NCBI GenBank assembly: GCA_022578965.1
Contig: MU400512.1
Span: forward strand, 310,001 to 374,000
DNA length: 64,000 nucleotides
Reading direction: 5' to 3'
DNA from: Xylaria sp. FL1777
Lineage: Eukaryota > Ascomycota > Sordariomycetes > Xylariales > Xylariaceae
The notes under the pieces are model-generated. The model was not told where the DNA came from and did no database searches. It was given only the letters and a program-made list of their open reading frames with translations. This document shows positions 23,917-47,303 of this stretch, piece after piece. How positions within the stretch are numbered: position 1 is the first letter of the stretch; each line of letters starts with the position of its first letter. The position numbers and the translations under genes were made by a program.

Positions 23917-26090
23917 ATGTTGTTACCGATTGTTCTGGGCGGCATTGTGCTGCTCACTTTGCACTTCTATGCCAAACTTCGCCACAAGAGGTTCAACCAA
24001 TATGCCAACCTCCCTCAGTTGCCAACGACTCTTCTCCTGGGTCATCTCAACGTGATGGGCCGCTTCATCAGTATGGGAAAGCCCAATGGCCATCCGGGTA
24101 AATCTCAATTCTTCTTCCCTTCGTCGACGCCTACCCCTCACGCACCAACAGTTAACCTGTAGGGGTGGTCATGGTCAACAATTTCTAACCATATGATGGA
24201 GTAGATAATGCATTCCAAGCAGCTAGTGAGGCTCTTGGGCAGCCACCTCTCATGCTTATGGACCTTCGGCCATTCGGCCCTGCTAGTATGTACACACTGG
24301 AGTCAATTTTTTCCTTTCCAGTAACTTGAGGACTTCCAACATGTTTCGGGAGCACGCAACAGGGGCATAGTATTCACACAAAGGAGTAATTACTGATTCC
24401 AGCGAGCATAGTGGTCATCGTAAGAAGCCATGAAATAGCCGAGCAGATTTCTAAAGCAAGCAAGCCATTCCCGTATAGTCTCCCTAAAGTGCCACAAGTC
24501 CGCGGTCACCTGGTACACCTGGCTGGTGAAACTTCTATTCTAGGTGTAGATGTACGTTAACGAGGCACCCTTCATTCTCCTTTGGTCGATTTCGCAATGC
24601 TGATTTCAGGTCAAACATCGTATTAGGGGGAAGAATGGAAACAACTACGTAAACGTTTCAACCCGGGTTTCGCACCCCAACATTTGGCTACACTCCTTCC
24701 TCAGATCCTTGAGAAATCGTCAATTTTTATCGACAACTTAGACCGCCTTGCAACAACTGGGGGTTCCTTTTCACTTGTTAGGCTTACCGCAAATCTAACC
24801 TTCGATATAATTACTAGTGTTACTATGGATGTTGATTTTGGTGCTCAAGATGAGAAGAAGGCTGAAGAGAGCGATTTTCTCAAGGCCTACAATCAGCTTT
24901 TTGAAACCTACGCAAGCGAGCAAATGGACCTCCCTTGGTTTTTCACCCCTTTTACAGAGTGGGAGCGCCAACGGCTTTCCAAGCGTGTGAGAAAAACACT
25001 CTCATCTATCGTTCGGGACGCATACACCAAGAGAGATCAAAGAACCAAGTCTCGCAGTATCCTTTCCTTGAGTCTCGATGACAGTGTTACTACTGTAACA
25101 ACCCGCGCTATTGATGAAGCATGTGACCAACTAAGCACATTCTTATTTGCTGGCCATGATACCACTAGTGTCCTAATTTCGTGGATGTTCTATGAACTAT
25201 CACGTACGCCACACGCCCTGCAAGCGCTACGCGATGAATTAGACAACCTCTTCGGGCCAGGTCAGTAAAATTTTCTCTATTTGTATATCCTAATATTTCG
25301 GACTTCCCTCCTGTGTTTCATGCCCCAAGGCCGAAAACTGATGCAGAACTAATGACTTACCGGAGTCTAGACAATAACCCTTCAACTGTACGTGATAAAC
25401 TGCTTTCGGACGGTGGCTCAGACCTTCTAAATCGGATGCCGTATGCATCAGCCGTAATCAAAGAGACTCTTCGTCTCTGGCCACCTGCGGGCACCATGCG
25501 GTTAACGGAGCCGGGAGCTGGAATCAAGGTTCAGACTTCAGCCGGTGAAGAATATAATCTGGAAGGCGTCAGCATCTATAGTTGCGCTCCCATGATCCAC
25601 CGCGACACAAGTGTATACGGAGACAACGCGAATGACTTCGTTCCCGAACGCTGGTTACAGAATCAAAATAACATCCCGCCCTCGGCCTGGCGTGCCTTCG
25701 AAAGGGGCCCGCGTAACTGCATCGGCCAGGAGCTCGCTAATATTGAAGCCCGAGTTGTGGTAGCGCTTATTGCCCGTCGTTATGACTTTGTCAAGGTAAG
25801 TGCCATGGGCGTTGCACAATACAGAAGAATTGGTTGCTGACGTCTCTCTTTTTCTGATAGGTCGGTCTCGGCGCACTGGAAGTTGACGAGCTTGGAAAGC
25901 CAATTTTGGATACGAACGGCCAATACAAGGTGACTTCAGAGATGTACCCGGTAAGTTCACTAGACTGTCTTAGGCTGTCATTCTCTTGGAATTTCTAGCT
26001 AACGGACAGTTACAGACACGAAAAGTGACCCCTAAACCTGTTGATGATATGATGATGCGGGTGACTCTGTCTCACGAAAAGACTAACTAA
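23917..26090 (+). CDS. Microsomal cytochrome P450 monooxygenase
   Basis: The model is join(23917..24097, 24205..24285, 24403..24551, 24627..25260, 25371..25795, 25861..25950, 26016..26090), 544 aa, all phases consistent. An N-terminal membrane anchor (MLLPIVLGGIVLLTLHFYA) and a proline hinge precede the catalytic domain. It has a C-helix motif (EEWKQLRKRFNPGF), the I-helix oxygen-activation motif AGHDTTS (about residue 311), the ExxR motif KETLR (about 378) and the heme-ligand loop FERGPRNCIGQ (Cys about 463). The enzyme should sit in the ER and work with NADPH-P450 reductase. It is the nearest gene to the repetitive precursor, transcribed convergently with it, so a tailoring role is plausible (ustiloxin clusters also carry a P450). 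Substrate and CYP family are not assignable here. Confidence 0.92.
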
Positions 26091-26737: not shown

Positions 26738-27597
26738 TTACCATTGTTTCTTGCCTGGGAGCTCATATTCTGTAGCAATAAGGGTCTCGATAGAGTCAGC
26801 CAGCTCAGGGTTGGCAGCGGCCACACTCTTGAGCTTGTTAATGACAATATCGTCTAACTCAGAAAAAGAGTCAACAAATTATTTATCAAGTTTCTACAGC
26901 TTCAAGGCAAGGGGTTAGACTCACCCTCCGTGGTGGATCGCTTGCCCGGAAGTTCATACTCGGTGGCAATAAGGATCTCAATAGAGCTGGCTAGATCAGG
27001 ATTGGCAGCAGCAACGCTCTTTAGCTTATTAATGACAATGTCATCTAGTAAAAGTTAATAAAGAGGTCTTCATAGTTGTTTAACCTTGGGATTCAGGGGT
27101 AAAATTTACCCTCTGTGGTGGATCTCTTGCCCGGAAGCTCATACTCTGTAGCAATCACGACCTCGATGGAGTCAGCCAAGTCGGGATTGGCAGCGGCCAC
27201 GCTCTTGAGTTTATTAATGACAATATCATCTAGTAAAAGTCAGTGAAGAGATCTCCACAGTTGTTTGACTCTGGGGTCCAGGATTAGATTTACCGTCAGT
27301 GGTGGATCTCTTGCCCGGAAGTTCGTACTCTGTGGCAATCAAGACTTCGATAGAGTCGGCTAGGTCAGGGTTGGCAGCAGCGACGCTCTTAAGCTTGTTG
27401 ATGACAATATCACCTGGTAAAGGTCAATAAAGAGCTTTTTACAGTTGTTTGACTTTAGGGTTCGGGATTGGGTGTACCCTCAGTGGTAGACCTCTTGCCT
27501 GGAAGTTCATACTCCGTCGCAATAATCGTCTCGATGGAATCAGCCAGCTCGGGATTAGCTGCTGCAACTGACTTCAGCTTCGCTTGAATGATTGAGT
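26738..27597 (-). repeat. Tandem exon-plus-intron repeat inside the precursor gene
   Basis: Five repeat exons (120, 120, 120, 120, 116 nt) alternate with introns of 64, 64, 65 and 71 nt, giving a period of about 184-191 bp. Introns at 27414-27477, 27230-27293 and 27045-27109 are visibly homologous (shared GTYAAACAACT core and CTTTTACTAG-like 3' end). The duplicated unit was therefore the exon together with its intron. The intron at 26854-26924 has diverged. Confidence 0.85.
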
Positions 27598-27736
27598 CTA
27601 TAGAAAAAAGTCTCAGTGAGAAATTTACAGGGACAAGGTATTAATGGTGACAATCTCCTATACCTTCCGTGATGGGTGCGGCAAGCACAGCAGTGCAAAG
27701 AGCCAAGAGGATGGTGAAGATGGCAGAAGAGTACAT
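26738..27736 (-). CDS. Repetitive secreted precursor peptide, probable dikaritin-type RiPP precursor
   Basis: The model is complement(join(26738..26853, 26925..27044, 27110..27229, 27294..27413, 27478..27597, 27664..27736)), 222 aa. Exon 1 encodes a signal peptide (MYSSAIFTILLALCTAVLAA, then PITE). Each later exon encodes one repeat of 40 residues (38 in the last), all with phase-1 introns. Every repeat has the core KLKSVAAANP..LA.SIE..IATEYELPGK; repeats 1-4 continue R-STT(E/D), the last ends GKKQW. Tyr-Glu-Leu-Pro-Gly lies at residues 54-58, 94-98, 134-138, 174-178 and 214-218, each followed by KR (KK in the last), a Kex2-type cleavage site. This matches fungal UstA/PhomA-like precursors, cut into copies of a short Tyr-containing core that UstYa oxidases cyclise. 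A UstYa gene is divergently adjacent. The product itself is inferred. Confidence 0.88.
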
Positions 27737-28333
27737 CTTTATAGTTGATAGTTGCGGATTTTGTTAGATTTTTCGAGAGGTGCTATTGCTTTGTAGGATG
27801 TGATGAAACAAAGTTGGAATTGAGTTGAGATGAGCTGGCGACATCCCATCTATTTATGCATTTCTGCTCCTCGTGATATATGCCTCATTCGTCCCAACGC
27901 AGTATTCCCCATGTTACTTGAAAGCACATCCCACAGCAGCTCATTGGTGATCCTGAAGCACCGTCTGCTTCGTATAATTCCCTGCATGTCTTATCGGACC
28001 TTTCAGCCCGCGCAGGATTACTTTCCAGCCTTGACGAAAACGTCTAGGGTGTAGAAGATCACCACCGACATGAAGAAAGCCGCTGATCTTGTCTAGAACT
28101 CCACCGTGCCGCTGGAGTGCAGAAAGAATGCTTATTGCCATGCCATGGCCATGCCACTCCAGGTCCTGGACAATGGAGATTAGGCCTGACCAGAGACTTG
28201 GAGTTCTCGACCCCCTTCTACTCTTTTTTTCGCCGTTCTCCCCTTCTCTCTCCTTATTCTTCCGTCGTTTTTTGTCGCTTATCTATCCAAAACAATCTAC
28301 TTGTTAGATCCATCGAACACAACGAAATCAACT
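27737..28333. promoter_or_regulatory. Shared divergent promoter of precursor and UstYa genes
   Basis: The 597 bp between the two start codons is the only upstream sequence available to both genes, so co-regulation is likely (inference). A long pyrimidine tract at about 28205-28270 precedes the UstYa start. No transcription-factor site could be assigned. Confidence 0.5.
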
Positions 28334-29351
28334 ATGGAGCGTCACAACGACAAGATATATCTCGAGTATACACCTTCCCCCCAGGAAGAAGATGACTTGA
28401 CCACTGGGCTATTACTTGATAGCTCTAAGCCTTTCTTTCAGAAAGCAAAAACATCTCAGCGACGGCAGTTGGCACTATATATGATAGTAGTGCTCGAGTC
28501 AGTCGCACTTTTGGCGATTGGTATTTATAGATGGGACAGAATATTTGCACAGAGACCAGCTGTCTGGTGTAAGTATTGCCCTCATATAACCTATATTAAT
28601 TATGAACTAATTTGTTTTGTCAGCTCCTGTCCAACACTTGGTATCTCATCATATGTTGACTAGCACCCCATACTTCTTCAACAGAAGTCCATATCTAGGA
28701 AATGACACAGAGAGAGTGGACAAGCTCTGGTATGACATATACGATGGTAAGTGTGTTGCTCAAATCGCCTAAGCGTTGTATACATTTTCTAACGACGGAG
28801 CCTAGCTGGCATGATCAGCGTCCTCTCGGCAAACGAAGCATCGCATTTACTCAACGCTACACGAGCCGCGCCCAAGGCCCAAGATATGTACCTGGTCCAG
28901 CTACAAGTCTTCCACGACCTTCACTGTCTCAATCTCATCCGAAAATGGGTGTACATGGATGTATATCCCGATCAGGCCGAGTGGATTGATGGAAGGATCA
29001 ATCACGATCATATGAATGCTATACACGTGGGTAGGTTTTGATTTCTTTGTTGCTGTGAATTGGATTCCTAGTAGAGCCTCACAGACCCAGATAACTAACT
29101 TCATAGATCACTGCATCGATGCGCTGCGCCAATCTATTATGTGCACCAGCGATACCACCCCCAGGAAGTTCTCCCCCCATGACTACGAGAGGCAGTATTA
29201 TGTGTATCCGGACATCCAGGTGACGCAGACATGTGGGAACTTCGAAGCTATCAACGAGTGGGCGAATCAACGGCGGGTCGTCGAGTGGATGATGAGCTAC
29301 GACGATGAGTGGCAACGCACTAGATTCAACGTCTCCATGCCTGATCCCTAA
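28334..29351 (+). CDS. UstYa-family (DUF3328) oxidase
   Basis: The model is join(28334..28568, 28624..28746, 28806..29030, 29107..29351), 275 aa. A cytosolic N-terminus is followed by one transmembrane helix at about residues 46-65 (LALYMIVVLESVALLAIGIY), then the lumenal domain. Both diagnostic HxxHC motifs are present: HDLHC at 156-160, followed by LNLIR, and HVDHC at 193-197, followed by IDALRQ. The second motif is assembled across the last intron. An SPxQ..SPYLG segment precedes, as usual in the family. In ustiloxin, phomopsin and asperipin pathways UstYa proteins catalyse oxidative macrocyclisation of the precursor's core. Its neighbour is the repetitive precursor, divergent by 597 bp. 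Length and topology are normal. Confidence 0.93.
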
Positions 29352-32518: not shown

Positions 32519-34064
32519 TCACCTCCATATACGCATACATCCCACTGCTAGATAAGGTGCTGTGGCCCGCAGGCTAAGTGTAGTGATGAAGCATGCTACA
32601 AATACTAGGACCAAGCCAAGCAGAAAAATACTCAGATAGAATATTTCGACTGGGCGCGAAAGGAGGCCGTACTTCACGCCTTCTCGGCCATTACCTTCCT
32701 TATGGACCCTGGTACCCTCTTGGGGTATATATTTGAAGTCAAATTTTGATGCCCCTTTGAGGCCGCTCTGAATAACAGCGGAGTGTAAGAGACGTTTCCA
32801 ATGCTTCTCGTTCATTAGTAAGTAACCTGCCGCCGGAGTTGTGTTGATGTCACCTTACCTTAATCATCCAACGATCAAGCGTAGGGCTAAGTCGCTGGAC
32901 CATTGCCAAACCACCAACTAACCAGCAGTGCCCCCTGAAGCACGCATACGATATCCATCCCGGCCGGCCCATCTCAAGTTGGTCGCAGAGTTCGTGTCCG
33001 TTCAAGACGCGGCTCCCAGCCTCGATAAATTCTTTCGAGACATTAAAGGGGGGAAGGTCTACAAGGCATTTGATGAAGTTGAAGCATACTATCCGACTTG
33101 TCTTGGTAACTGTCAGCTCATGCACCAGCATTGATTCCATCGTAGCCTTAGCCTGGTCGACGTTGACGAAATATTCGTCAGGTGTTGCGAGCAGATAGCC
33201 CAGGTAGCGGAAAAGTGCAATGTAATCTTCCTTCTCTTGCTCGGTAGGATAAACGCCCATCCGGGGAAGCTGGAGCCACATATGATTGCAACAAAACGTG
33301 GCTATTGAGTGTATACTGTCAAGGGTATTAACCGGGACACCATGAGTATGCACGTCAAAATACTCTGGCCGGGTTTGGACCATTTTCAAAATTCTCTGCC
33401 GCACAGAAGAGTGGAGAAGTCGTATTCGAATCGTCGAGGTGTGTCCAGCACCTCCAGGCTGAATTGCTTGGAGAGACTCGGTGACCTGTAGAAGCCACTG
33501 GAAGGTCTCGAGAAGGCGATGTAAGAGAACTCGCGTCGAGAAGCCGCCTGTGCGAACGAGAACTTCCACAACACCCGACTAGTAGATCATAATAAAGGAT
33601 CCTGTCAGCCTAGTAGGCTCAAGATAAATATAGGGTCTCCAAAGGACATCGACCCCTCTTGGGAATTAACTCACCGCGGCGCTGTTCTCTCCGACAAAAC
33701 CCTGGAGTGCAAAGCCCATCAAGTTCGCTGCTGCATAACGATAGAAAAAGCGCTGGCCGCGCTCCAGCTGGTCCCAATCCACCCAGTCTGGGACTGTGTG
33801 TAAGTATGTCCAAAACTCTCGAAGGTCATGGTCGCTTGCATGGTTATCCGCAAGTAACTGATGAAGATCAGGTCGCTTTCTAGGGTCGTCGGAGAATCCC
33901 TTCTGTTTGGCGATAGCTTGTAGTTTTTCAAGCGCCCTTTCCCCAATTGTATCATATTCATACCTCAGGGGGTCGGTCTTCCATCTGGGCAGATGTAGTT
34001 CTGTCCACTTGAAAACATACGAACCTGAGTGTTGTAACGACCCTACTTTTTCTTCTGCCCCCAT
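32519..34064 (-). CDS. MpaB/rubber-oxygenase-like (DUF2236) membrane oxygenase
   Basis: The model is complement(join(32519..32806, 32859..33578, 33675..34064)), 465 aa. The opening (KWTELHLPRWKTDPLRYEYD) and the block RFFYRYAAANLMGFALQG.VGENSAA are typical of fungal ER-bound oxygenases related to MpaB of mycophenolic acid biosynthesis. The family motif RIRLLHSSVRQRI and the VEVLVRTGGFST/LLHRLLET region follow. A C-terminal transmembrane helix (IFYLSIFLLGLVLVFVACFI) anchors the protein. The last intron uses a perfect TACTAAT branch followed after only a few bases by GAG, giving WMIK-KHWKRLL. These heme proteins cleave carbon-carbon double bonds of prenyl chains or oxidise related substrates. 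Lying beside a terpene synthase, it could act on a terpenoid, but a role in the peptide pathway is also possible. Confidence 0.87.
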
Positions 34065-35477
34065 GGTGGTAGCACAGTTGTGTGACGTTGCGATGATTCC
34101 TATTTAACGGTGAGAACGCCATGATGGGACGGCCGTTCGATGATGCTTCTTATTTAAGTGATGATTTATTCTGAATATATTGGTGGTAGTCAGCAGTGGG
34201 GGGGCAAGACCAAAATATCACCGCTGATCGCCATTCAACTTTCTTGGCATCAGCTGCATGCCAGGCTTCCGCTATCATGACGTTACTCTGCATCTCGCTG
34301 TCAACCAATAACATAACTCGAAGGCAATATGCTTGATTTAATAACTCCGAAGCCAGTCCCGAAAGTTCCTTAATTGCTTCCCATAGCCCGCCAAGCATTC
34401 GCCATACCATAGCCGCAACGCGAATCCCGGGAGACATCGGGGTTTCCATCCCCTCATCTGCTGTGTTACGTCAGTTTCAAGCTGCATGAGTTGAGTGTTG
34501 TAAATTTTGATAGGCCGAAGAAGCCGTCGTGAGTTCAAGGGACCCAGGAAGGTTATCTGAAGAACCTACGGCATCTAGTTTAGTGGCCGCTTCGTCCATG
34601 CTAGACTTATTAGTAATTCATATATGAGGCTAAAGGTATGCAGATCTGTGCACCGCGCTTATTTGCTATCACGGCATCGCCGTCTGTCTATCATGACAGA
34701 ATTTCTCTTAGCTGAAGCCCTAAAACTGCAGTTACCTGAGGAAGCGGTCAACCATATGTAAAGGTTATAGGTCTTACTGTTCCGTTAGCGGCCACGTCTC
34801 TATAGCTCCTAAGTGGTCACCCATAAACCATATACGAACCACTCTTGATTTGTGACACTTCGAATCTGACCTATTGGTGCTCATTATACTTCGATCGCTC
34901 CCACGTTAAGGTACCATCACAGGATCTCATCTTACAATAGCACTATCAGCCATCCACTTGGTTGGAAATGATAGCCTGCAGAGCCGGATTGGCCGCGCCA
35001 ATCAACCGCTATTTATAGCAAGAGCTGAGGCTAGGGAGTAAAGAAGATACTCGAAGAAGGAGTAATTTTCGGTACTATCCAAATATCTTCTGGCTTCCCA
35101 GGTTGGAAATCTCCGGGCATAAGCTGGAAATAATAGGCCTGTCACATAACACCGCGGGGCCGCGGAGGTTAGCACGGTCGTCAGTATGTCTTGTTTAGGT
35201 AGGTTGAATAGCTGACCGGTTGAGGTCGAGAATGGGTTAAGATGCGCGTGTAACCTACAAGATTAGTAGTGCCGGTACTGGAAGGCGCACATGGTTGTAA
35301 GAAGTGGGCGTTTTTTTTTCGGACTTATGACTACCTATATGTGCGACTGCGCCCTTCAGAGTCGCCCGAGGAGTTGGGATTATTCTTTCAACATAGGACT
35401 ATTGAAGTGTCTCTGTTATTTTCTTAGGATAGCGAGTTACATTGAGACGCCAACACACATTTGTGTGCAAAGTAAAG
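34065..35477. other. Divergent intergenic region upstream of MpaB-like and terpene synthase genes
   Basis: Contains both promoters. A possible degraded coding fragment at 34150-34540 (-) is listed separately. Nothing else is recognised. Confidence 0.5.
34150..34540 (-). pseudogene. Possible helical gene fragment
   Basis: Two overlapping minus frames (34338-34538 and 34150-34449) together give helix-rich sequence (QLMQLETDVTQQMRG, then GGLWEAIKELSGLASELLN), offset by one base around 34450. This looks more protein-like than random frames but has no recognised domain and no clean splice pair joining the parts. Best taken as a decayed fragment. Confidence 0.25.
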
Positions 35478-37013
35478 ATGTCACAAGATACTCCTAGACC
35501 TGAGCAGGTGATGGTTCGAATACCTGATATGTTTGTCTCATTCCTTGCGGAACCTCCTAGGTTTAATCCGAACTATAGCCAAGTAAAAGCCAGGTCGGAA
35601 GCCTGGATTTCTAAGTACGCCCTCTTCCCATTTATTCCGATGCTGTCACCAACTTCTCACACGCAAATGGGCAGATTCTGTTCTTTCGACGAGCGAATGT
35701 CGATGCTGATAAGCAAATGCGACTTCTCCTATTTCATCGCTATCGCTGCCCCTGAAGCTGGCATTCTAGAATTCCGAACCCTGTGTGATTGGGGGAATTG
35801 GGTAAGCGAAGATGCTGTAGTTCATCGTTATTCAGTGCTAATTTGAATTTTAGGTGTTCCCATTCGACGACCGTGTGCCAATAAGAATATCCCATTTAGT
35901 ATAGTCAATTTAACTAAGCTTTTGATAGTGTTTGACAATGGTGAACTTCGAGACGAACCCGCAGCTGCCGCAACGATACTGCGAAGTCTTATGAGTCCAA
36001 TGAGTAAATATCAGACATGGCAAGAGAAGAATATATCTCGAAGAGAAAGGCTGCCTATAGTCAAGGTCCATGACACGGTTTGGCTGAGAGTCCAAGAAGC
36101 AAGTACATCTGTTCAAACTTCGTCTAGATCAACTAACATCTGATAGGGGTCTTCAGAAGGTTTGTAATCATCCTCAACTAAGTATAGTGATAGTCAAATA
36201 CGGATAATATTAGGGGTACAGAGGAGATTCTCCAAAGCAATGGCTGATTATTGCGCCGGTGCCTTAATACAAGTCGAAGACCTTTCTACGCATAAGATAC
36301 CTATCATGCCCGAAGAGATGTTAAAGAGACGACAGCTGTCAGCTGGGGTGAGCCCTTTGTTTTCGCTAGTTGAGTACGCGCACGGCCTTCACATACCCGA
36401 CTACGTTTTCGAACACCCTGCAATTCAGGAGATCGAGAGGTTAGGCATTGATTTCGTCTTATTGTGAGTTGAAATGATAGACTATATTGATATGGGACTC
36501 AATTGAAGACAGAATGAACGATACTCTATCTTACATGAAGGAGGAGGTAATCGTATATTGCTCCTTTTTTGGACATGAATGAGATGTGCTAATCGAGCTT
36601 CAGGGGGAGTCCGTACCCCACAATATAGTGGCCGTGGCAAGAATGAGCGGCCGTGATGCCCAAGAGGCTTTTGACTATGTAGGAAACATGCTCGAGAGCA
36701 GATACGACCGGTGGGAGAAAGCAGTTGACATGATACCACACTGGGGGGAAGATATCAACAAGGACGTTGAGCGTTACATCCGAGGGGTCGCAGATGTCGT
36801 TCGTGCAAATCTATACTGGAGGTAACATGACCACCTTGCCCTCCCCACTCTCCGAGAACTCTCGCTCACACGCCAATTCACAATAGTTTCAAATCGGAGA
36901 GGTACCTAGGGAAAGAAGGGGCTATTGTTCGGCAAACCCGCTGTTTGCAAGTCTTGAAATCACCACCGTTTCTTCAGCAAAGTGGTCGTTGTGACGAGAA
37001 TAGCACCAACTAG
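35478..37013 (+). CDS. Class I terpene synthase (sesquiterpene-cyclase type)
   Basis: The model is join(35478..35801, 35854..35872, 35929..36102, 36214..36463, 36513..36546, 36604..36821, 36887..37013), 381 aa, all junctions in phase. The metal-binding motif DDLFD (residues 113-117, within WVFPFDDLFD) is built across the tiny 19-nt second exon. The NSE triad NDTLSYMKEE (258-267) spans the 34-nt fifth exon, and the C-terminal RY pair is at 345-346. VHDTVWLRVQEA supplies the pyrophosphate-sensing Arg region. The enzyme should ionise and cyclise a prenyl diphosphate (probably farnesyl diphosphate) with three Mg ions. The fold and length fit the fungal pentalenene/trichodiene-type branch. The product cannot be predicted. 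It probably belongs to the same cluster as the MpaB-like oxygenase and P450. Confidence 0.93.
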
Positions 37014-44441: not shown

Positions 44442-47303
44442 ATGGCTGCTTTTGCCTTGATTGGTCTTGCGAGTAATATATTGCAGTTCGTCCAACTGGG
44501 AACACAGCTGCTATTAGAAGCTCGCGAGCTATACAAGTCTGCTAGCGGCGCTACTGCATTCAACGCTCGGGTGGAGGCTGATACCGAGAGCCTGAAATCA
44601 TTAATGGAGCAGATCCAAACCTCCAAAGTTTCAGTCACTGTTGCAGTTCGTGGGACTAAAGCCGAACGACAGTTACTCGACTCTGCAAAATCGTGTACCG
44701 AGGTAGCGGACAAGCTCCTAGACTTGCTTGAAGCATCCAAAGTCAAAAACTCTAGCAGCTCTCGACTAAGAGCGATCAAGCAAGCATTCAACAATGAGTC
44801 CACGCGCGACCAAGTGACTCACTTACAAAAACGCCTGCAAGAGTTGCAAGCTGCGACTATGCTTCGCTTTATCATGGTCTTGAGGTATTGTAATCGAGTC
44901 CATTAGAACTATTATAAGTGCTAATGATGCTTTAGAGATGACCAATCTGCAATCTGTAGATCAATCAACGAGCTCACCATAGTCAACCAACGGCTAGAAG
45001 CGAATACTACAAGCAAGCTGGCTTCTATTCATCATGGCTTGATAAAAATTCAAAACAGGGCTGATGAAGACGTTAAACAAATGACGTCCCTTATCAACAC
45101 TATGCGGAATGAGACCTTGGATGTGCATAAGCAGCAAAAGCTTCTGAAAAGCCTGCAATTCCCAGAGATCAAAATACGACAGGAGTCAGTAAAGGCCGCT
45201 CATGCTAGGACTTTCGAGTGGATTCTTCATGAACACGATTTTGTTAATTGGCTTGAGAATGGCGACGGCATCTATTGGATCAGGGGAAAGGCCGGAAGTG
45301 GAAAGTCAACACTGATGCGCTTCCTCATCGAGAATCCCAAAATGTCCAAGGTGTTGTCAACATGGGCTGGAGGGCGCAAATTAGTATCGGCTAGCCATTT
45401 CTTTTGGAAGGCTGGAACCCCAATGCAAAAGTCACGGGCGGGACTACTTCGCACGCTTCTGTTCCAGATCCTCCGACAGGTCCCAGATCTCATCGAGAAG
45501 CTTTTCCCACTTCGTTGGAAAGAGAGAGACATCGATCTAGACGGATGGTCGGAGAATGAACTTTTTGAAGCTATCAGAATTCTCCCACTCGACGATAGTC
45601 TTCCAGTTCGGTTCTGTTTCTTTATTGATGGCCTCGATGAGTATACCACAGGAGCTGAACGTTATCATGGCGACTACCAAGAACTAATCGACTTGTTGGA
45701 ATCCCTCTCGACGTCGTCCGTTATCAAGCTCTGTGTTTCTAGTCGGCCTTGGACACCATTTGAGAGAGCATTTGGGGATAGTCCAAATAAGCTGCGGCTA
45801 GAGGATTTAACGAAAAATGATATCAAAGCATACGTACAAGATAAATTCCAAAGCAGTCTGCATTTCCAAAAATTTGCAAGAGTTGATCCCAGATGCAGAA
45901 CATTCGACGACCAGATCGTCCAAAAAGCTCAAGGAGTATTTCTCTGGGTATTTCTAGTCATCGAGTCGCTTCTAAAAGGGGTATCGGTTGCTGATGACTT
46001 TGATGACTTACAAAGAAGGCTTGATTCTATACCGGCAGATCTTGAGGAGTTCTTCAAGCATATGCTTGAAACTATCGAACCAGTTTATTGGGAACAGACG
46101 ACGCGCATTTTCCAAGTTACCGTTGATGCTGGGCAGCCACTACCACTTTTGGGATATGAATTGCTCGACCGCGAGAGACAGAAACCGAACTATGCGTTAT
46201 ACCTCTCGATTGATGAAGTTTCAGCCCTCGATATCCAGGAGACTCAAAACAGGACAAAGATCCGTTTAAATTCTCGTTGTCGAGATCTGCTTGAAGTGGT
46301 CCACGATGAAACTGAGAACTCGTTCATGTCTGATAAAGTCGAGTTCTTGCATCGCACGGTTAGAGATTTCTTTGTGGAGAACGATTTTTTATCTGATATG
46401 ATGAAAAAACGGCAGACGAACTTCGACAGTCAAATATCCTTGTGCCGAATCATGTTGGCTTTGGTCAAGATCTTGACTGCCTCGCGAATGGGCAAACCAG
46501 ATGCTAATACATTATTTGGTTTGGTTGATTCACTTATGTACTACGTTCGTATGATTGAGATGGACTTCATCGGTGGCGAGAAGCCTATTCCAGAGCTTAA
46601 AGAGAACCAGAGAGTACACATTGCTCATGAATTATTGGATGAAGTTGATCGAGTCAACACAGATTTAATACCCAATCGGGTCATCCACTGGACAAATATG
46701 AGAGACCCACCACGAGGAATGTACCAAGAATATACCCAGAAGACATTTCTTGCGTCCTGTATCGAAGCAAGATTGCTGTTATACGTCGCCGTGCAGCTTG
46801 ATGCCAACCCTTGGTACATAAGCCAGAAAAAGGGACGGCCACTGCTTGATTATGCTCTACGGCCAACAATCATAAACCCTACAAAGCTGACGAACTTCAA
46901 GGAGGGGCCAGATCTTCCCCTGGTTGAGCTTCTTTTGTCGAAAGGGGCCGATCCTAACAAGCCAATCCACATATACGAGGGTCGGACTCCGTGGAGCTTG
47001 TTCCTCGAAACGTGCGCGCAACACGGCAGCCGGCCCCAGCGTGACTTTTTCGGAAATATAATACCGCTGCAGCAGGATTTTTACGAGACCCTGCATTTGA
47101 TGATTTCGAGCGGCGCGGACAGGAGACGACTTTACTCGCGCAGTGGAGGCGGAAGCTCGGGCGCAAATGTCCTCTTCAAAGCAACTTATCTCCACGAGCT
47201 CGGACTCAGTGGCCAGGAGATTGTTAATCTGAATGCGCTCCTTGCGGCGAAAAGTTCCGAAGATACTCAAGTCTCGTGGCTTTCAAGGCTATGGGGAAAA
47301 TAG
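44442..47303 (+). CDS. NACHT-domain STAND NTPase (fungal NLR-like)
   Basis: The model is join(44442..44884, 44936..47303), 936 aa. The N-terminal about 200 residues are helical and begin AAFALIGLASNILQFVQLG, the pattern of the fungal STAND N-terminal/HeLo-like domain. The NACHT module follows with Walker A GKAGSGKSTLM (about residue 268) and Walker B FFIDGLDEY, then a winged-helix-like segment. The C-terminus has two degenerate ankyrin-like units (VELLLSKGADPNKP and LHLMISSGADRR) rather than a long repeat array. Fungal NLR-like proteins sense non-self or intracellular cues and trigger cell death or defence. It is flanked on both sides by membrane-protein genes. The short C-terminal sensor suggests loss of repeats or a different ligand domain. 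Confidence 0.88.

What the first reader, a model, noticed from the sequence alone, without database searches (positions are those of the whole stretch)
26738..27736. New dikaritin-type RiPP precursor with five exon-encoded repeats
A signal peptide is followed by five 40-residue repeats, each containing an invariant IATEYELPGK block and a dibasic site. Together with the adjacent UstYa gene this fits the ustiloxin/phomopsin class of fungal ribosomal peptides. The implied core, Tyr-Glu-Leu-Pro-Gly, differs from the cores I know (YAIG, YVIPID). The unspliced frames hide the gene, so ORF-based annotation would miss it.
Basis: partly seen in the sequence, partly recalled or inferred. Interest (0 to 1): 0.95.

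Follow-up and report, generated by a model that had tools for sequence, protein, structure and literature searches.

The report
One-exon-per-repeat fungal peptide precursor
A Xylaria fungus carries a gene whose five predicted repeat exons each encode one copy of a 40-residue unit containing IATEYELPGK, beside a UstYa-type gene; it is likely a precursor cut into small secreted peptides that the UstYa enzyme would cross-link, a new member of a known fungal peptide class with an unusual cassette-like gene layout.

Summary
On the minus strand, 27736..26738, six predicted exons (GT-AG introns of 64-71 nt, all phase 1) encode 222 residues: a signal-peptide-like start, then five units with invariant IATEYELPGK and KR (KK in the last), under strong protein-level selection. 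A divergent UstYa gene (PF11807, two HxxHC motifs) starts 597 bp away. The genome is that of Xylaria sp. FL1777. Neither precursor nor this UstYa was found in a 5.8-billion-protein collection. Five other UstYa loci of this genome have repeat precursors; at all six, as I read the strands, a UstYa gene lies divergent on the precursor's 5' side, but only this precursor has one repeat per exon. "Dikaritin" fits only loosely: no tyrosinase match on this contig, no S41 peptidase match in the window. P450 membership is open. Splicing, the core YELPG and the cross-link are inferred; KLKSVAAANP is as strictly conserved, so core limits are unproven. Verdict: real; a new variant of the UstYa-associated Kex2-processed repeat proteins.

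The parts
27664..27736 (-). exon 1: start codon and signal-peptide-like region (MYSSAIFTILLALCTAVLAAPITE)
   Evidence: splice model; 11-residue hydropathy peak 2.83 here against 1.72 from residue 31 on
27478..27597 (-). exon 2: repeat unit 1 (DSIIQAKLKSVAAANPELADSIETIIATEYELPGKRSTTE)
   Evidence: own-genome match
27294..27413 (-). exon 3: repeat unit 2
27110..27229 (-). exon 4: repeat unit 3
26925..27044 (-). exon 5: repeat unit 4
26738..26853 (-). exon 6: repeat unit 5, ends ...YELPGKKQW stop
27598..27663 (-). intron 1 (66 nt, GT-AG, phase 1, 32-45% identical to the others)
27414..27477 (-). intron 2 (64 nt); 70-77% identical to introns 3 and 4
27230..27293 (-). intron 3 (64 nt)
27045..27109 (-). 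intron 4 (65 nt)
26854..26924 (-). intron 5 (71 nt), about 50% identical to introns 2-4
27737..28333 (.). 597-bp stretch between the two divergent start codons, predicted shared promoter region
28334..29351 (+). UstYa-family gene, 4 predicted exons (28334-28568, 28624-28746, 28806-29030, 29107-29351), 275 aa, HDLHC and HVDHC motifs
   Evidence: PF11807 E 7.6e-40
23917..26090 (+). cytochrome P450, 7 predicted exons; cluster membership uncertain

Best explanation
The gene at 27736-26738 is predicted to encode a secreted precursor whose five 40-residue units, one per predicted exon, are likely cut at Lys-Arg by a Kex2-type protease and then cross-linked at the tyrosine of YELPG by the enzyme of the divergent UstYa gene, giving a small secreted cyclic peptide. 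Shown by sequence: five units with invariant IATEYELPGK under strong protein-level selection, four KR sites and one KK, a hydrophobic N-terminus, an adjacent divergent UstYa gene with both HxxHC motifs, and a match to the proprotein-convertase P domain elsewhere in the genome. Inferred: splicing, secretion, the Kex2 cut, trimming of KR, the core YELPG, and the bond (most likely Tyr oxygen to the Leu side chain, by analogy to Tyr-Ile in ustiloxin and phomopsin). The invariant KLKSVAAANP block in each unit is probably a per-core recognition segment for the enzyme. Because the repeat exons 2-5 are flanked by phase-1 introns on both sides, units can be gained or lost without breaking the frame.
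For: Gene model and repeats; selection; UstYa; a divergent UstYa gene on the 5' side at 6 of 6 repeat-precursor loci found among the UstYa regions of this genome, strands as I read them; no such repeats in five control pieces (47 kb) of the window's remainder; Kex2-type P domain on C38. Published pattern: KEP = signal peptide + Kex2-separated repeats, DUF3328 genes most frequent at the next gene (PMC7329392, part of section 6 and section 7); UstA cores flanked by ED and KR (PMC6514808, passages).
Against: No tyrosinase match on C7, no S41 peptidase match in the window, and no MFS/ABC transporter, methyltransferase or reductase family among the 30 frames scanned, which leave out many short exons. 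No homologous precursor. Selection does not single out YELPG: KLKSVAAANP is equally invariant. UstYa proteins also serve polyketide and nonribosomal pathways (PMC12048977, section 22). No RNA or product data. The last unit ends KKQW, a weaker Kex2 site (recalled).
Confidence: 0.72

Rival explanations
1. The units are released as unmodified linear peptides (about 38 residues after KR trimming), acting as hormone-like or antimicrobial signals, and UstYa is only a neighbour or acts elsewhere.
For: Selection covers two blocks, KLKSVAAANP and IATEYELPGK; most published KEPs (6120 of 7878) have no DUF3328 gene among the 15 nearest genes (PMC7329392).
Against: The UstYa gene is the immediate divergent neighbour, as at 5 other precursor loci of this genome by my strand reading; each unit has one Tyr, just after an acidic residue and shortly before GKR (GKK in the last).
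Confidence: 0.15
2. The protein is a structural cell-wall repeat protein of the repellent kind, and UstYa belongs to another pathway with the P450 or the terpene synthase at about 35.4-36.8 kb.
For: Long conserved repeat; a P450, an mpaB-type oxygenase and a terpene synthase lie within 10 kb.
Against: Dibasic sites at the unit boundaries; UstYa is the precursor's immediate divergent neighbour, an arrangement seen again with unrelated repeats elsewhere in the genome.
Confidence: 0.08
3. The cluster is a P450-precursor-UstYa three-gene pathway, the P450 oxidising the cross-linked peptide (a variant of the best explanation, not exclusive with it).
For: P450 stop is 647 bp from the precursor stop; ustiloxin clusters hold a P450 (recalled).
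Against: P450 relatives of 66-74% identity occur in many Xylariales (best 120 of 1739 hits seen), while no Xylaria protein is named among the 8 UstYa hits.
Confidence: 0.25

Closest known systems
UstYa-associated Kex2-processed repeat proteins (KEPs, ust-RiPS)
   Same: Signal-peptide-like start, repeats separated by KR, adjacent DUF3328/UstYa gene
   Different: One repeat per predicted exon; 40-residue units; no homologue found
Ustiloxin (UstA) and phomopsin (PhomA) dikaritins
   Same: Acid-Tyr core followed by KR; Tyr with a branched residue two positions on (Y-E-L vs Y-A-I, Y-V-I)
   Different: No tyrosinase match on the contig; UstA is thought to release 13-14-residue pieces (PMC6514808), here 40; core sequence differs
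Asperipin-2a (AprA/AprY)
   Same: Pathway with a single UstYa-type enzyme (PMC6514808)
   Different: Core FYYTGY, two rings; no counterpart of the apr transporter or reductase among the frames scanned
Epichloecyclins (GigA)
   Same: Signal peptide, repeats separated by kexin sites, a clustered UstYa-like cyclase gene (PMC8982410, passages)
   Different: Different core; whether gigA repeats sit in separate exons could not be checked here

Membership tests
UstYa-associated KEP / dikaritin precursor in the operational sense of PMC9632046 | N-terminal signal peptide | tested here: met
   Hydrophobic h-region and VLA-AP cleavage-like site; simple hydropathy only, no dedicated predictor
UstYa-associated KEP / dikaritin precursor in the operational sense of PMC9632046 | tandem repeats of at least 10 residues separated by putative kexin sites | tested here: met
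   five 40-residue units; KR in four, KK in the last
UstYa-associated KEP / dikaritin precursor in the operational sense of PMC9632046 | DUF3328/UstYa gene close by | tested here: met
   PF11807 gene 597 bp away, both HxxHC motifs
Dikaritins sensu Ding 2016 (as reported in PMC6514808) | PhomQ/UstQ-type tyrosinase in the cluster | tested here: not met
   18 PF00264 matches in the genome, none on C7; the search scores only its best candidates
Dikaritins sensu Ding 2016 (as reported in PMC6514808) | S41 peptidase in the cluster | tested here: not met
   3 PF03572 matches; the one on C7 (392648) is about 55 kb from the precursor, outside the window
Dikaritins sensu Ding 2016 (as reported in PMC6514808) | PhomM-type methyltransferase / zinc-finger regulator | tested here: inconclusive
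   none in the 30 frames scanned with Pfam; short exons not all scanned
Dikaritins | Tyr-derived ether cross-link in the product | not testable with these tools
   needs LC-MS/MS
Homologue of a precursor already in the protein collection | sequence similarity | tested here: not met
   161 candidates, none at E 1e-3 or better; only lengths of about 122-388 aa sharing 5-residue words were candidates

The most novel reading that the evidence does not exclude
A cassette-exon RiPP precursor: each core travels with its own leader in a symmetric 120-nt phase-1 exon, so core number is set by exon gain, loss or skipping rather than by slippage inside one exon, and one gene could yield one to five cores per transcript.
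Probability: 0.25. Interest if true: 0.62.

Novelty: new variant of a known kind. Interest (0 to 1): 0.47.

Why it matters
If made, the product would be a Tyr cross-linked peptide with a core (YELPG) that turned up in no peptide paper of the library searched, from a genus where similarity-based mining has seen little: a published survey lists ustiloxin-like clusters in several Hypoxylaceae, does not name Xylaria hypoxylon among them, and says its method cannot judge the real diversity (PMC8403587, passages). The layout also bears on how repeat precursors grow: the duplicated unit is an exon plus its intron, hidden from ORF-based mining, so such precursors may be under-counted. Six precursor-UstYa pairs read as divergent in one genome suggest a simple mining rule: look on the 5' side of each UstYa gene.

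Tried and rejected
Rejected: the plus-strand reading of the same repeats (LPGSSYSVAI...), because it has a stop in one unit and more variable residues. Rejected: Pfam hits of the precursor (Phage_tail_X and 14 others): they are mutually unrelated families, and in all but one no stretch passes on its own; they look like sums over repeats. Rejected: filing under tyrosinase-type dikaritins. Not relied on: a hint that units 2/4 and 3/5 pair at four-fold sites (14 of 17 and 10 of 14 identical); too few sites, and the introns disagree. Led nowhere: paralogue search with one unit (only the five exons); paper searches for gigA introns and for exon duplication or introns with Kex2/RiPP, seen as listings, with passages of PMC9769878 and PMC6374014; a first KexRiPP search; LEL_10022; a promoter scan of bases 1-100 (of no use). 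The word search for repeats needs a 5-residue word three times, so single-core or strongly diverged precursors at other UstYa loci would be missed.

Full report
What is there. The minus strand from 27736 to 26738 holds six predicted exons that join into 222 codons and a stop. Exon 1 gives MYSSAIFTILLALCTAVLAAPITE; its 11-residue hydropathy peak is 2.83, against 1.72 at most from residue 31 on, which fits a signal peptide; no dedicated predictor was at hand. Exons 2-5 are 120 nt each and exon 6 is 116 nt; each encodes one unit, four ending IATEYELPGKR plus a short tail, the last IATEYELPGKKQW. All five introns are GT..AG, 64-71 nt, and all lie after the first base of a codon, so each of the four 120-nt exons is symmetric. 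Introns 2-4 are 70-77% identical to each other, intron 5 about 50% and intron 1 32-45% to the rest: at least for units 1-3 the duplicated unit is exon plus following intron.

Is it a gene. Among the five units, 33 third-position columns vary against 12 first and 9 second, and 22 of 37 codons vary while the residue stays fixed. dS is 0.73-2.8 (undefined for 2 of 10 pairs) and dN 0.01-0.25. No other frame of the six is open in all units, and this one has the fewest variable residues. So the units are old and the protein is what has been kept. Two blocks are fixed: KLKSVAAANP and IATEYELPGK; positions 16, 19, 23 and 24 between them vary. This is a result against naming YELPG the core on conservation alone.

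Whose genome. The P450 at 23917-26090 matches a cytochrome P450 of Xylaria sp. FL1777 at 516 of 521 aligned columns; the differences sit at two splice choices, and the C-terminal ends of the two models are not aligned. That protein's contig is 720,793 bases, exactly the length of C7, on which the window lies. I take the genome to be that of Xylaria sp. FL1777 (Xylariaceae). Yet neither the precursor (161 candidates, 0 hits at 1e-3) nor this UstYa (314 candidates, 8 hits, best identity 61%) was found in the same protein collection, so both seem unannotated there. Caveat: these searches only consider proteins of 0.55-1.75 times the query length that share 5-residue words.

Neighbours. The UstYa gene (28334-29351, four predicted exons, 275 aa) matches PF11807 at profile positions 4-220 of 220, E 7.6e-40, and has HDLHC and HVDHC. 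Its start is 597 bp from the precursor's start, in the opposite direction. Its closest relatives are in Akanthomyces lecanii (61%), Hirsutella minnesotensis (57%), an unnamed contig (53%) and Neoarthrinium moseri (48%). The P450, in contrast, has relatives of 66-74% in many Xylariales and a few other Sordariomycetes (best 120 of 1739 hits seen). The two thus show different species patterns, but weakly, since UstYa genes may be unannotated elsewhere too; P450 membership of the pathway is open. Pfam scans of 30 open frames found no MFS/ABC transporter, methyltransferase or tyrosinase (a mitochondrial carrier lies at 10.2-11.4 kb); the 18 tyrosinase matches of the genome lie on other contigs; the only S41 peptidase match on C7 is about 55 kb from the precursor. 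A Kex2-type P domain is on C38.

The genome as control. PF11807 gives 31 exon matches. I fetched 16 ten-kilobase regions that, with the window, hold them (L023 and L024 overlap) and scanned them and 17 kb round the finding for 5-residue words repeated three or more times. Counting only repeat regions with 10 or more such words, 6 of 16 distinct stretches qualify: this one, C5 (EPHHAGKKTKGNNANNKR-like), C58 (HDQDEIYNTGKREA), C24 (NWYTDSASGVAGSLEARDKDT), C19 (DDDEVELLWGSGTWSYGSSKR) and C12 (DPAIATYADVVAEADEKKKLRR). I dropped three whose hits had fewer than 10 words (L016, a simple repeat with 9; L026; L029); the other seven had none. At all six a UstYa match lies on the precursor's 5' side, on the opposite strand, 1.2-2.6 kb from the repeat region; C19 has further UstYa matches in other orientations. 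I chose the coding strand by eye from signal-like starts and basic sites. C24 is the least certain: a plus-strand frame is open there too and its basic sites are irregular; read on the plus strand it would not be divergent. Repeats were sought only near UstYa genes. In the five other precursors the repeats run through one open frame; only the present gene splits them into exons.

What it works like. Published KEPs have a signal peptide and Kex2-separated repeats; 1758 of 7878 have a DUF3328 gene among the 15 nearest, most often next door, and 65.6% of the repeats in those contain Tyr (PMC7329392, first part of section 6 and all of section 7). UstA cores are flanked by ED and KR (PMC6514808, passages) and ustiloxin and phomopsin repeats share EDYXI (PMC6339444, passages). 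Here E-YELPG-KR has the same order: acid, Tyr, a branched residue two places on, KR. I therefore infer Kex2 cutting, removal of KR and a UstYa-made bond from Tyr to Leu. PMC9632046 (passages) used signal peptide, kexin-separated repeats of 10 or more residues and a nearby DUF3328 gene as its test for dikaritin precursors; this gene passes. It fails the stricter set reported for the phomopsin family (tyrosinase, S41 peptidase; PMC6514808). UstYa proteins also occur in polyketide and nonribosomal pathways (PMC12048977, section 22), so the link is not proof.

Novelty. Diverse cores are the rule: 2560 of 7878 KEPs had no homologue (PMC7329392). A new core is thus ordinary. The one-repeat-per-exon layout is what stands out. 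'Intron' and 'exon' do not occur in the main texts of PMC7329392 or PMC6339444, and the listings showed no paper that I recognised as describing it; the phomopsin paper was not held and the gigA paper was not among the listings, so I do not claim it is unpublished. The string YELPG occurs in one held paper, on tooth enamel.

Noticed in passing
window about 35440-36825 (+): Terpene synthase (PF19086, 1.6e-35 on exon pieces I joined).
   Followed up: partly
window 32853-34103 (-): mpaB/rubber-oxygenase-type gene (PF09995, 2e-22) between the UstYa gene and the terpene synthase.
   Followed up: no
G000:C58 (L021:7599-7796): Repeat precursor HDQDEIYNTGKREA x5 beside a divergent UstYa gene; the repeat has G-KR like the window's unit.
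   Followed up: partly
G000:C19:412106-422511 (L023, L024): Several UstYa matches round a three-repeat precursor (DDDEVELLWGSGTWSYGSSKR): a multi-UstYa cluster.
   Followed up: partly
G000:C12 (L027:2759-3136): Precursor DPAIATYADVVAEADEKKKLRR x6 with a divergent UstYa gene.
   Followed up: partly
G000:C5 (L014:7966-8565): Di-histidine repeat precursor (EPHHAGKKTKGN...KR) with a divergent UstYa gene, recalling the HH types of PMC7329392.
   Followed up: partly
G000:C24 (L022:2482-3437): Eleven-fold repeat NWYTDSASGVAGSLEARDKDT near a UstYa gene; both strands have an open repeat frame and dibasic sites are irregular.
   Followed up: partly
window 44928-47300 (+): Gene with NPHP3_N, NACHT and DUF7791 domains, NLR-like (label recalled).
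   Followed up: no
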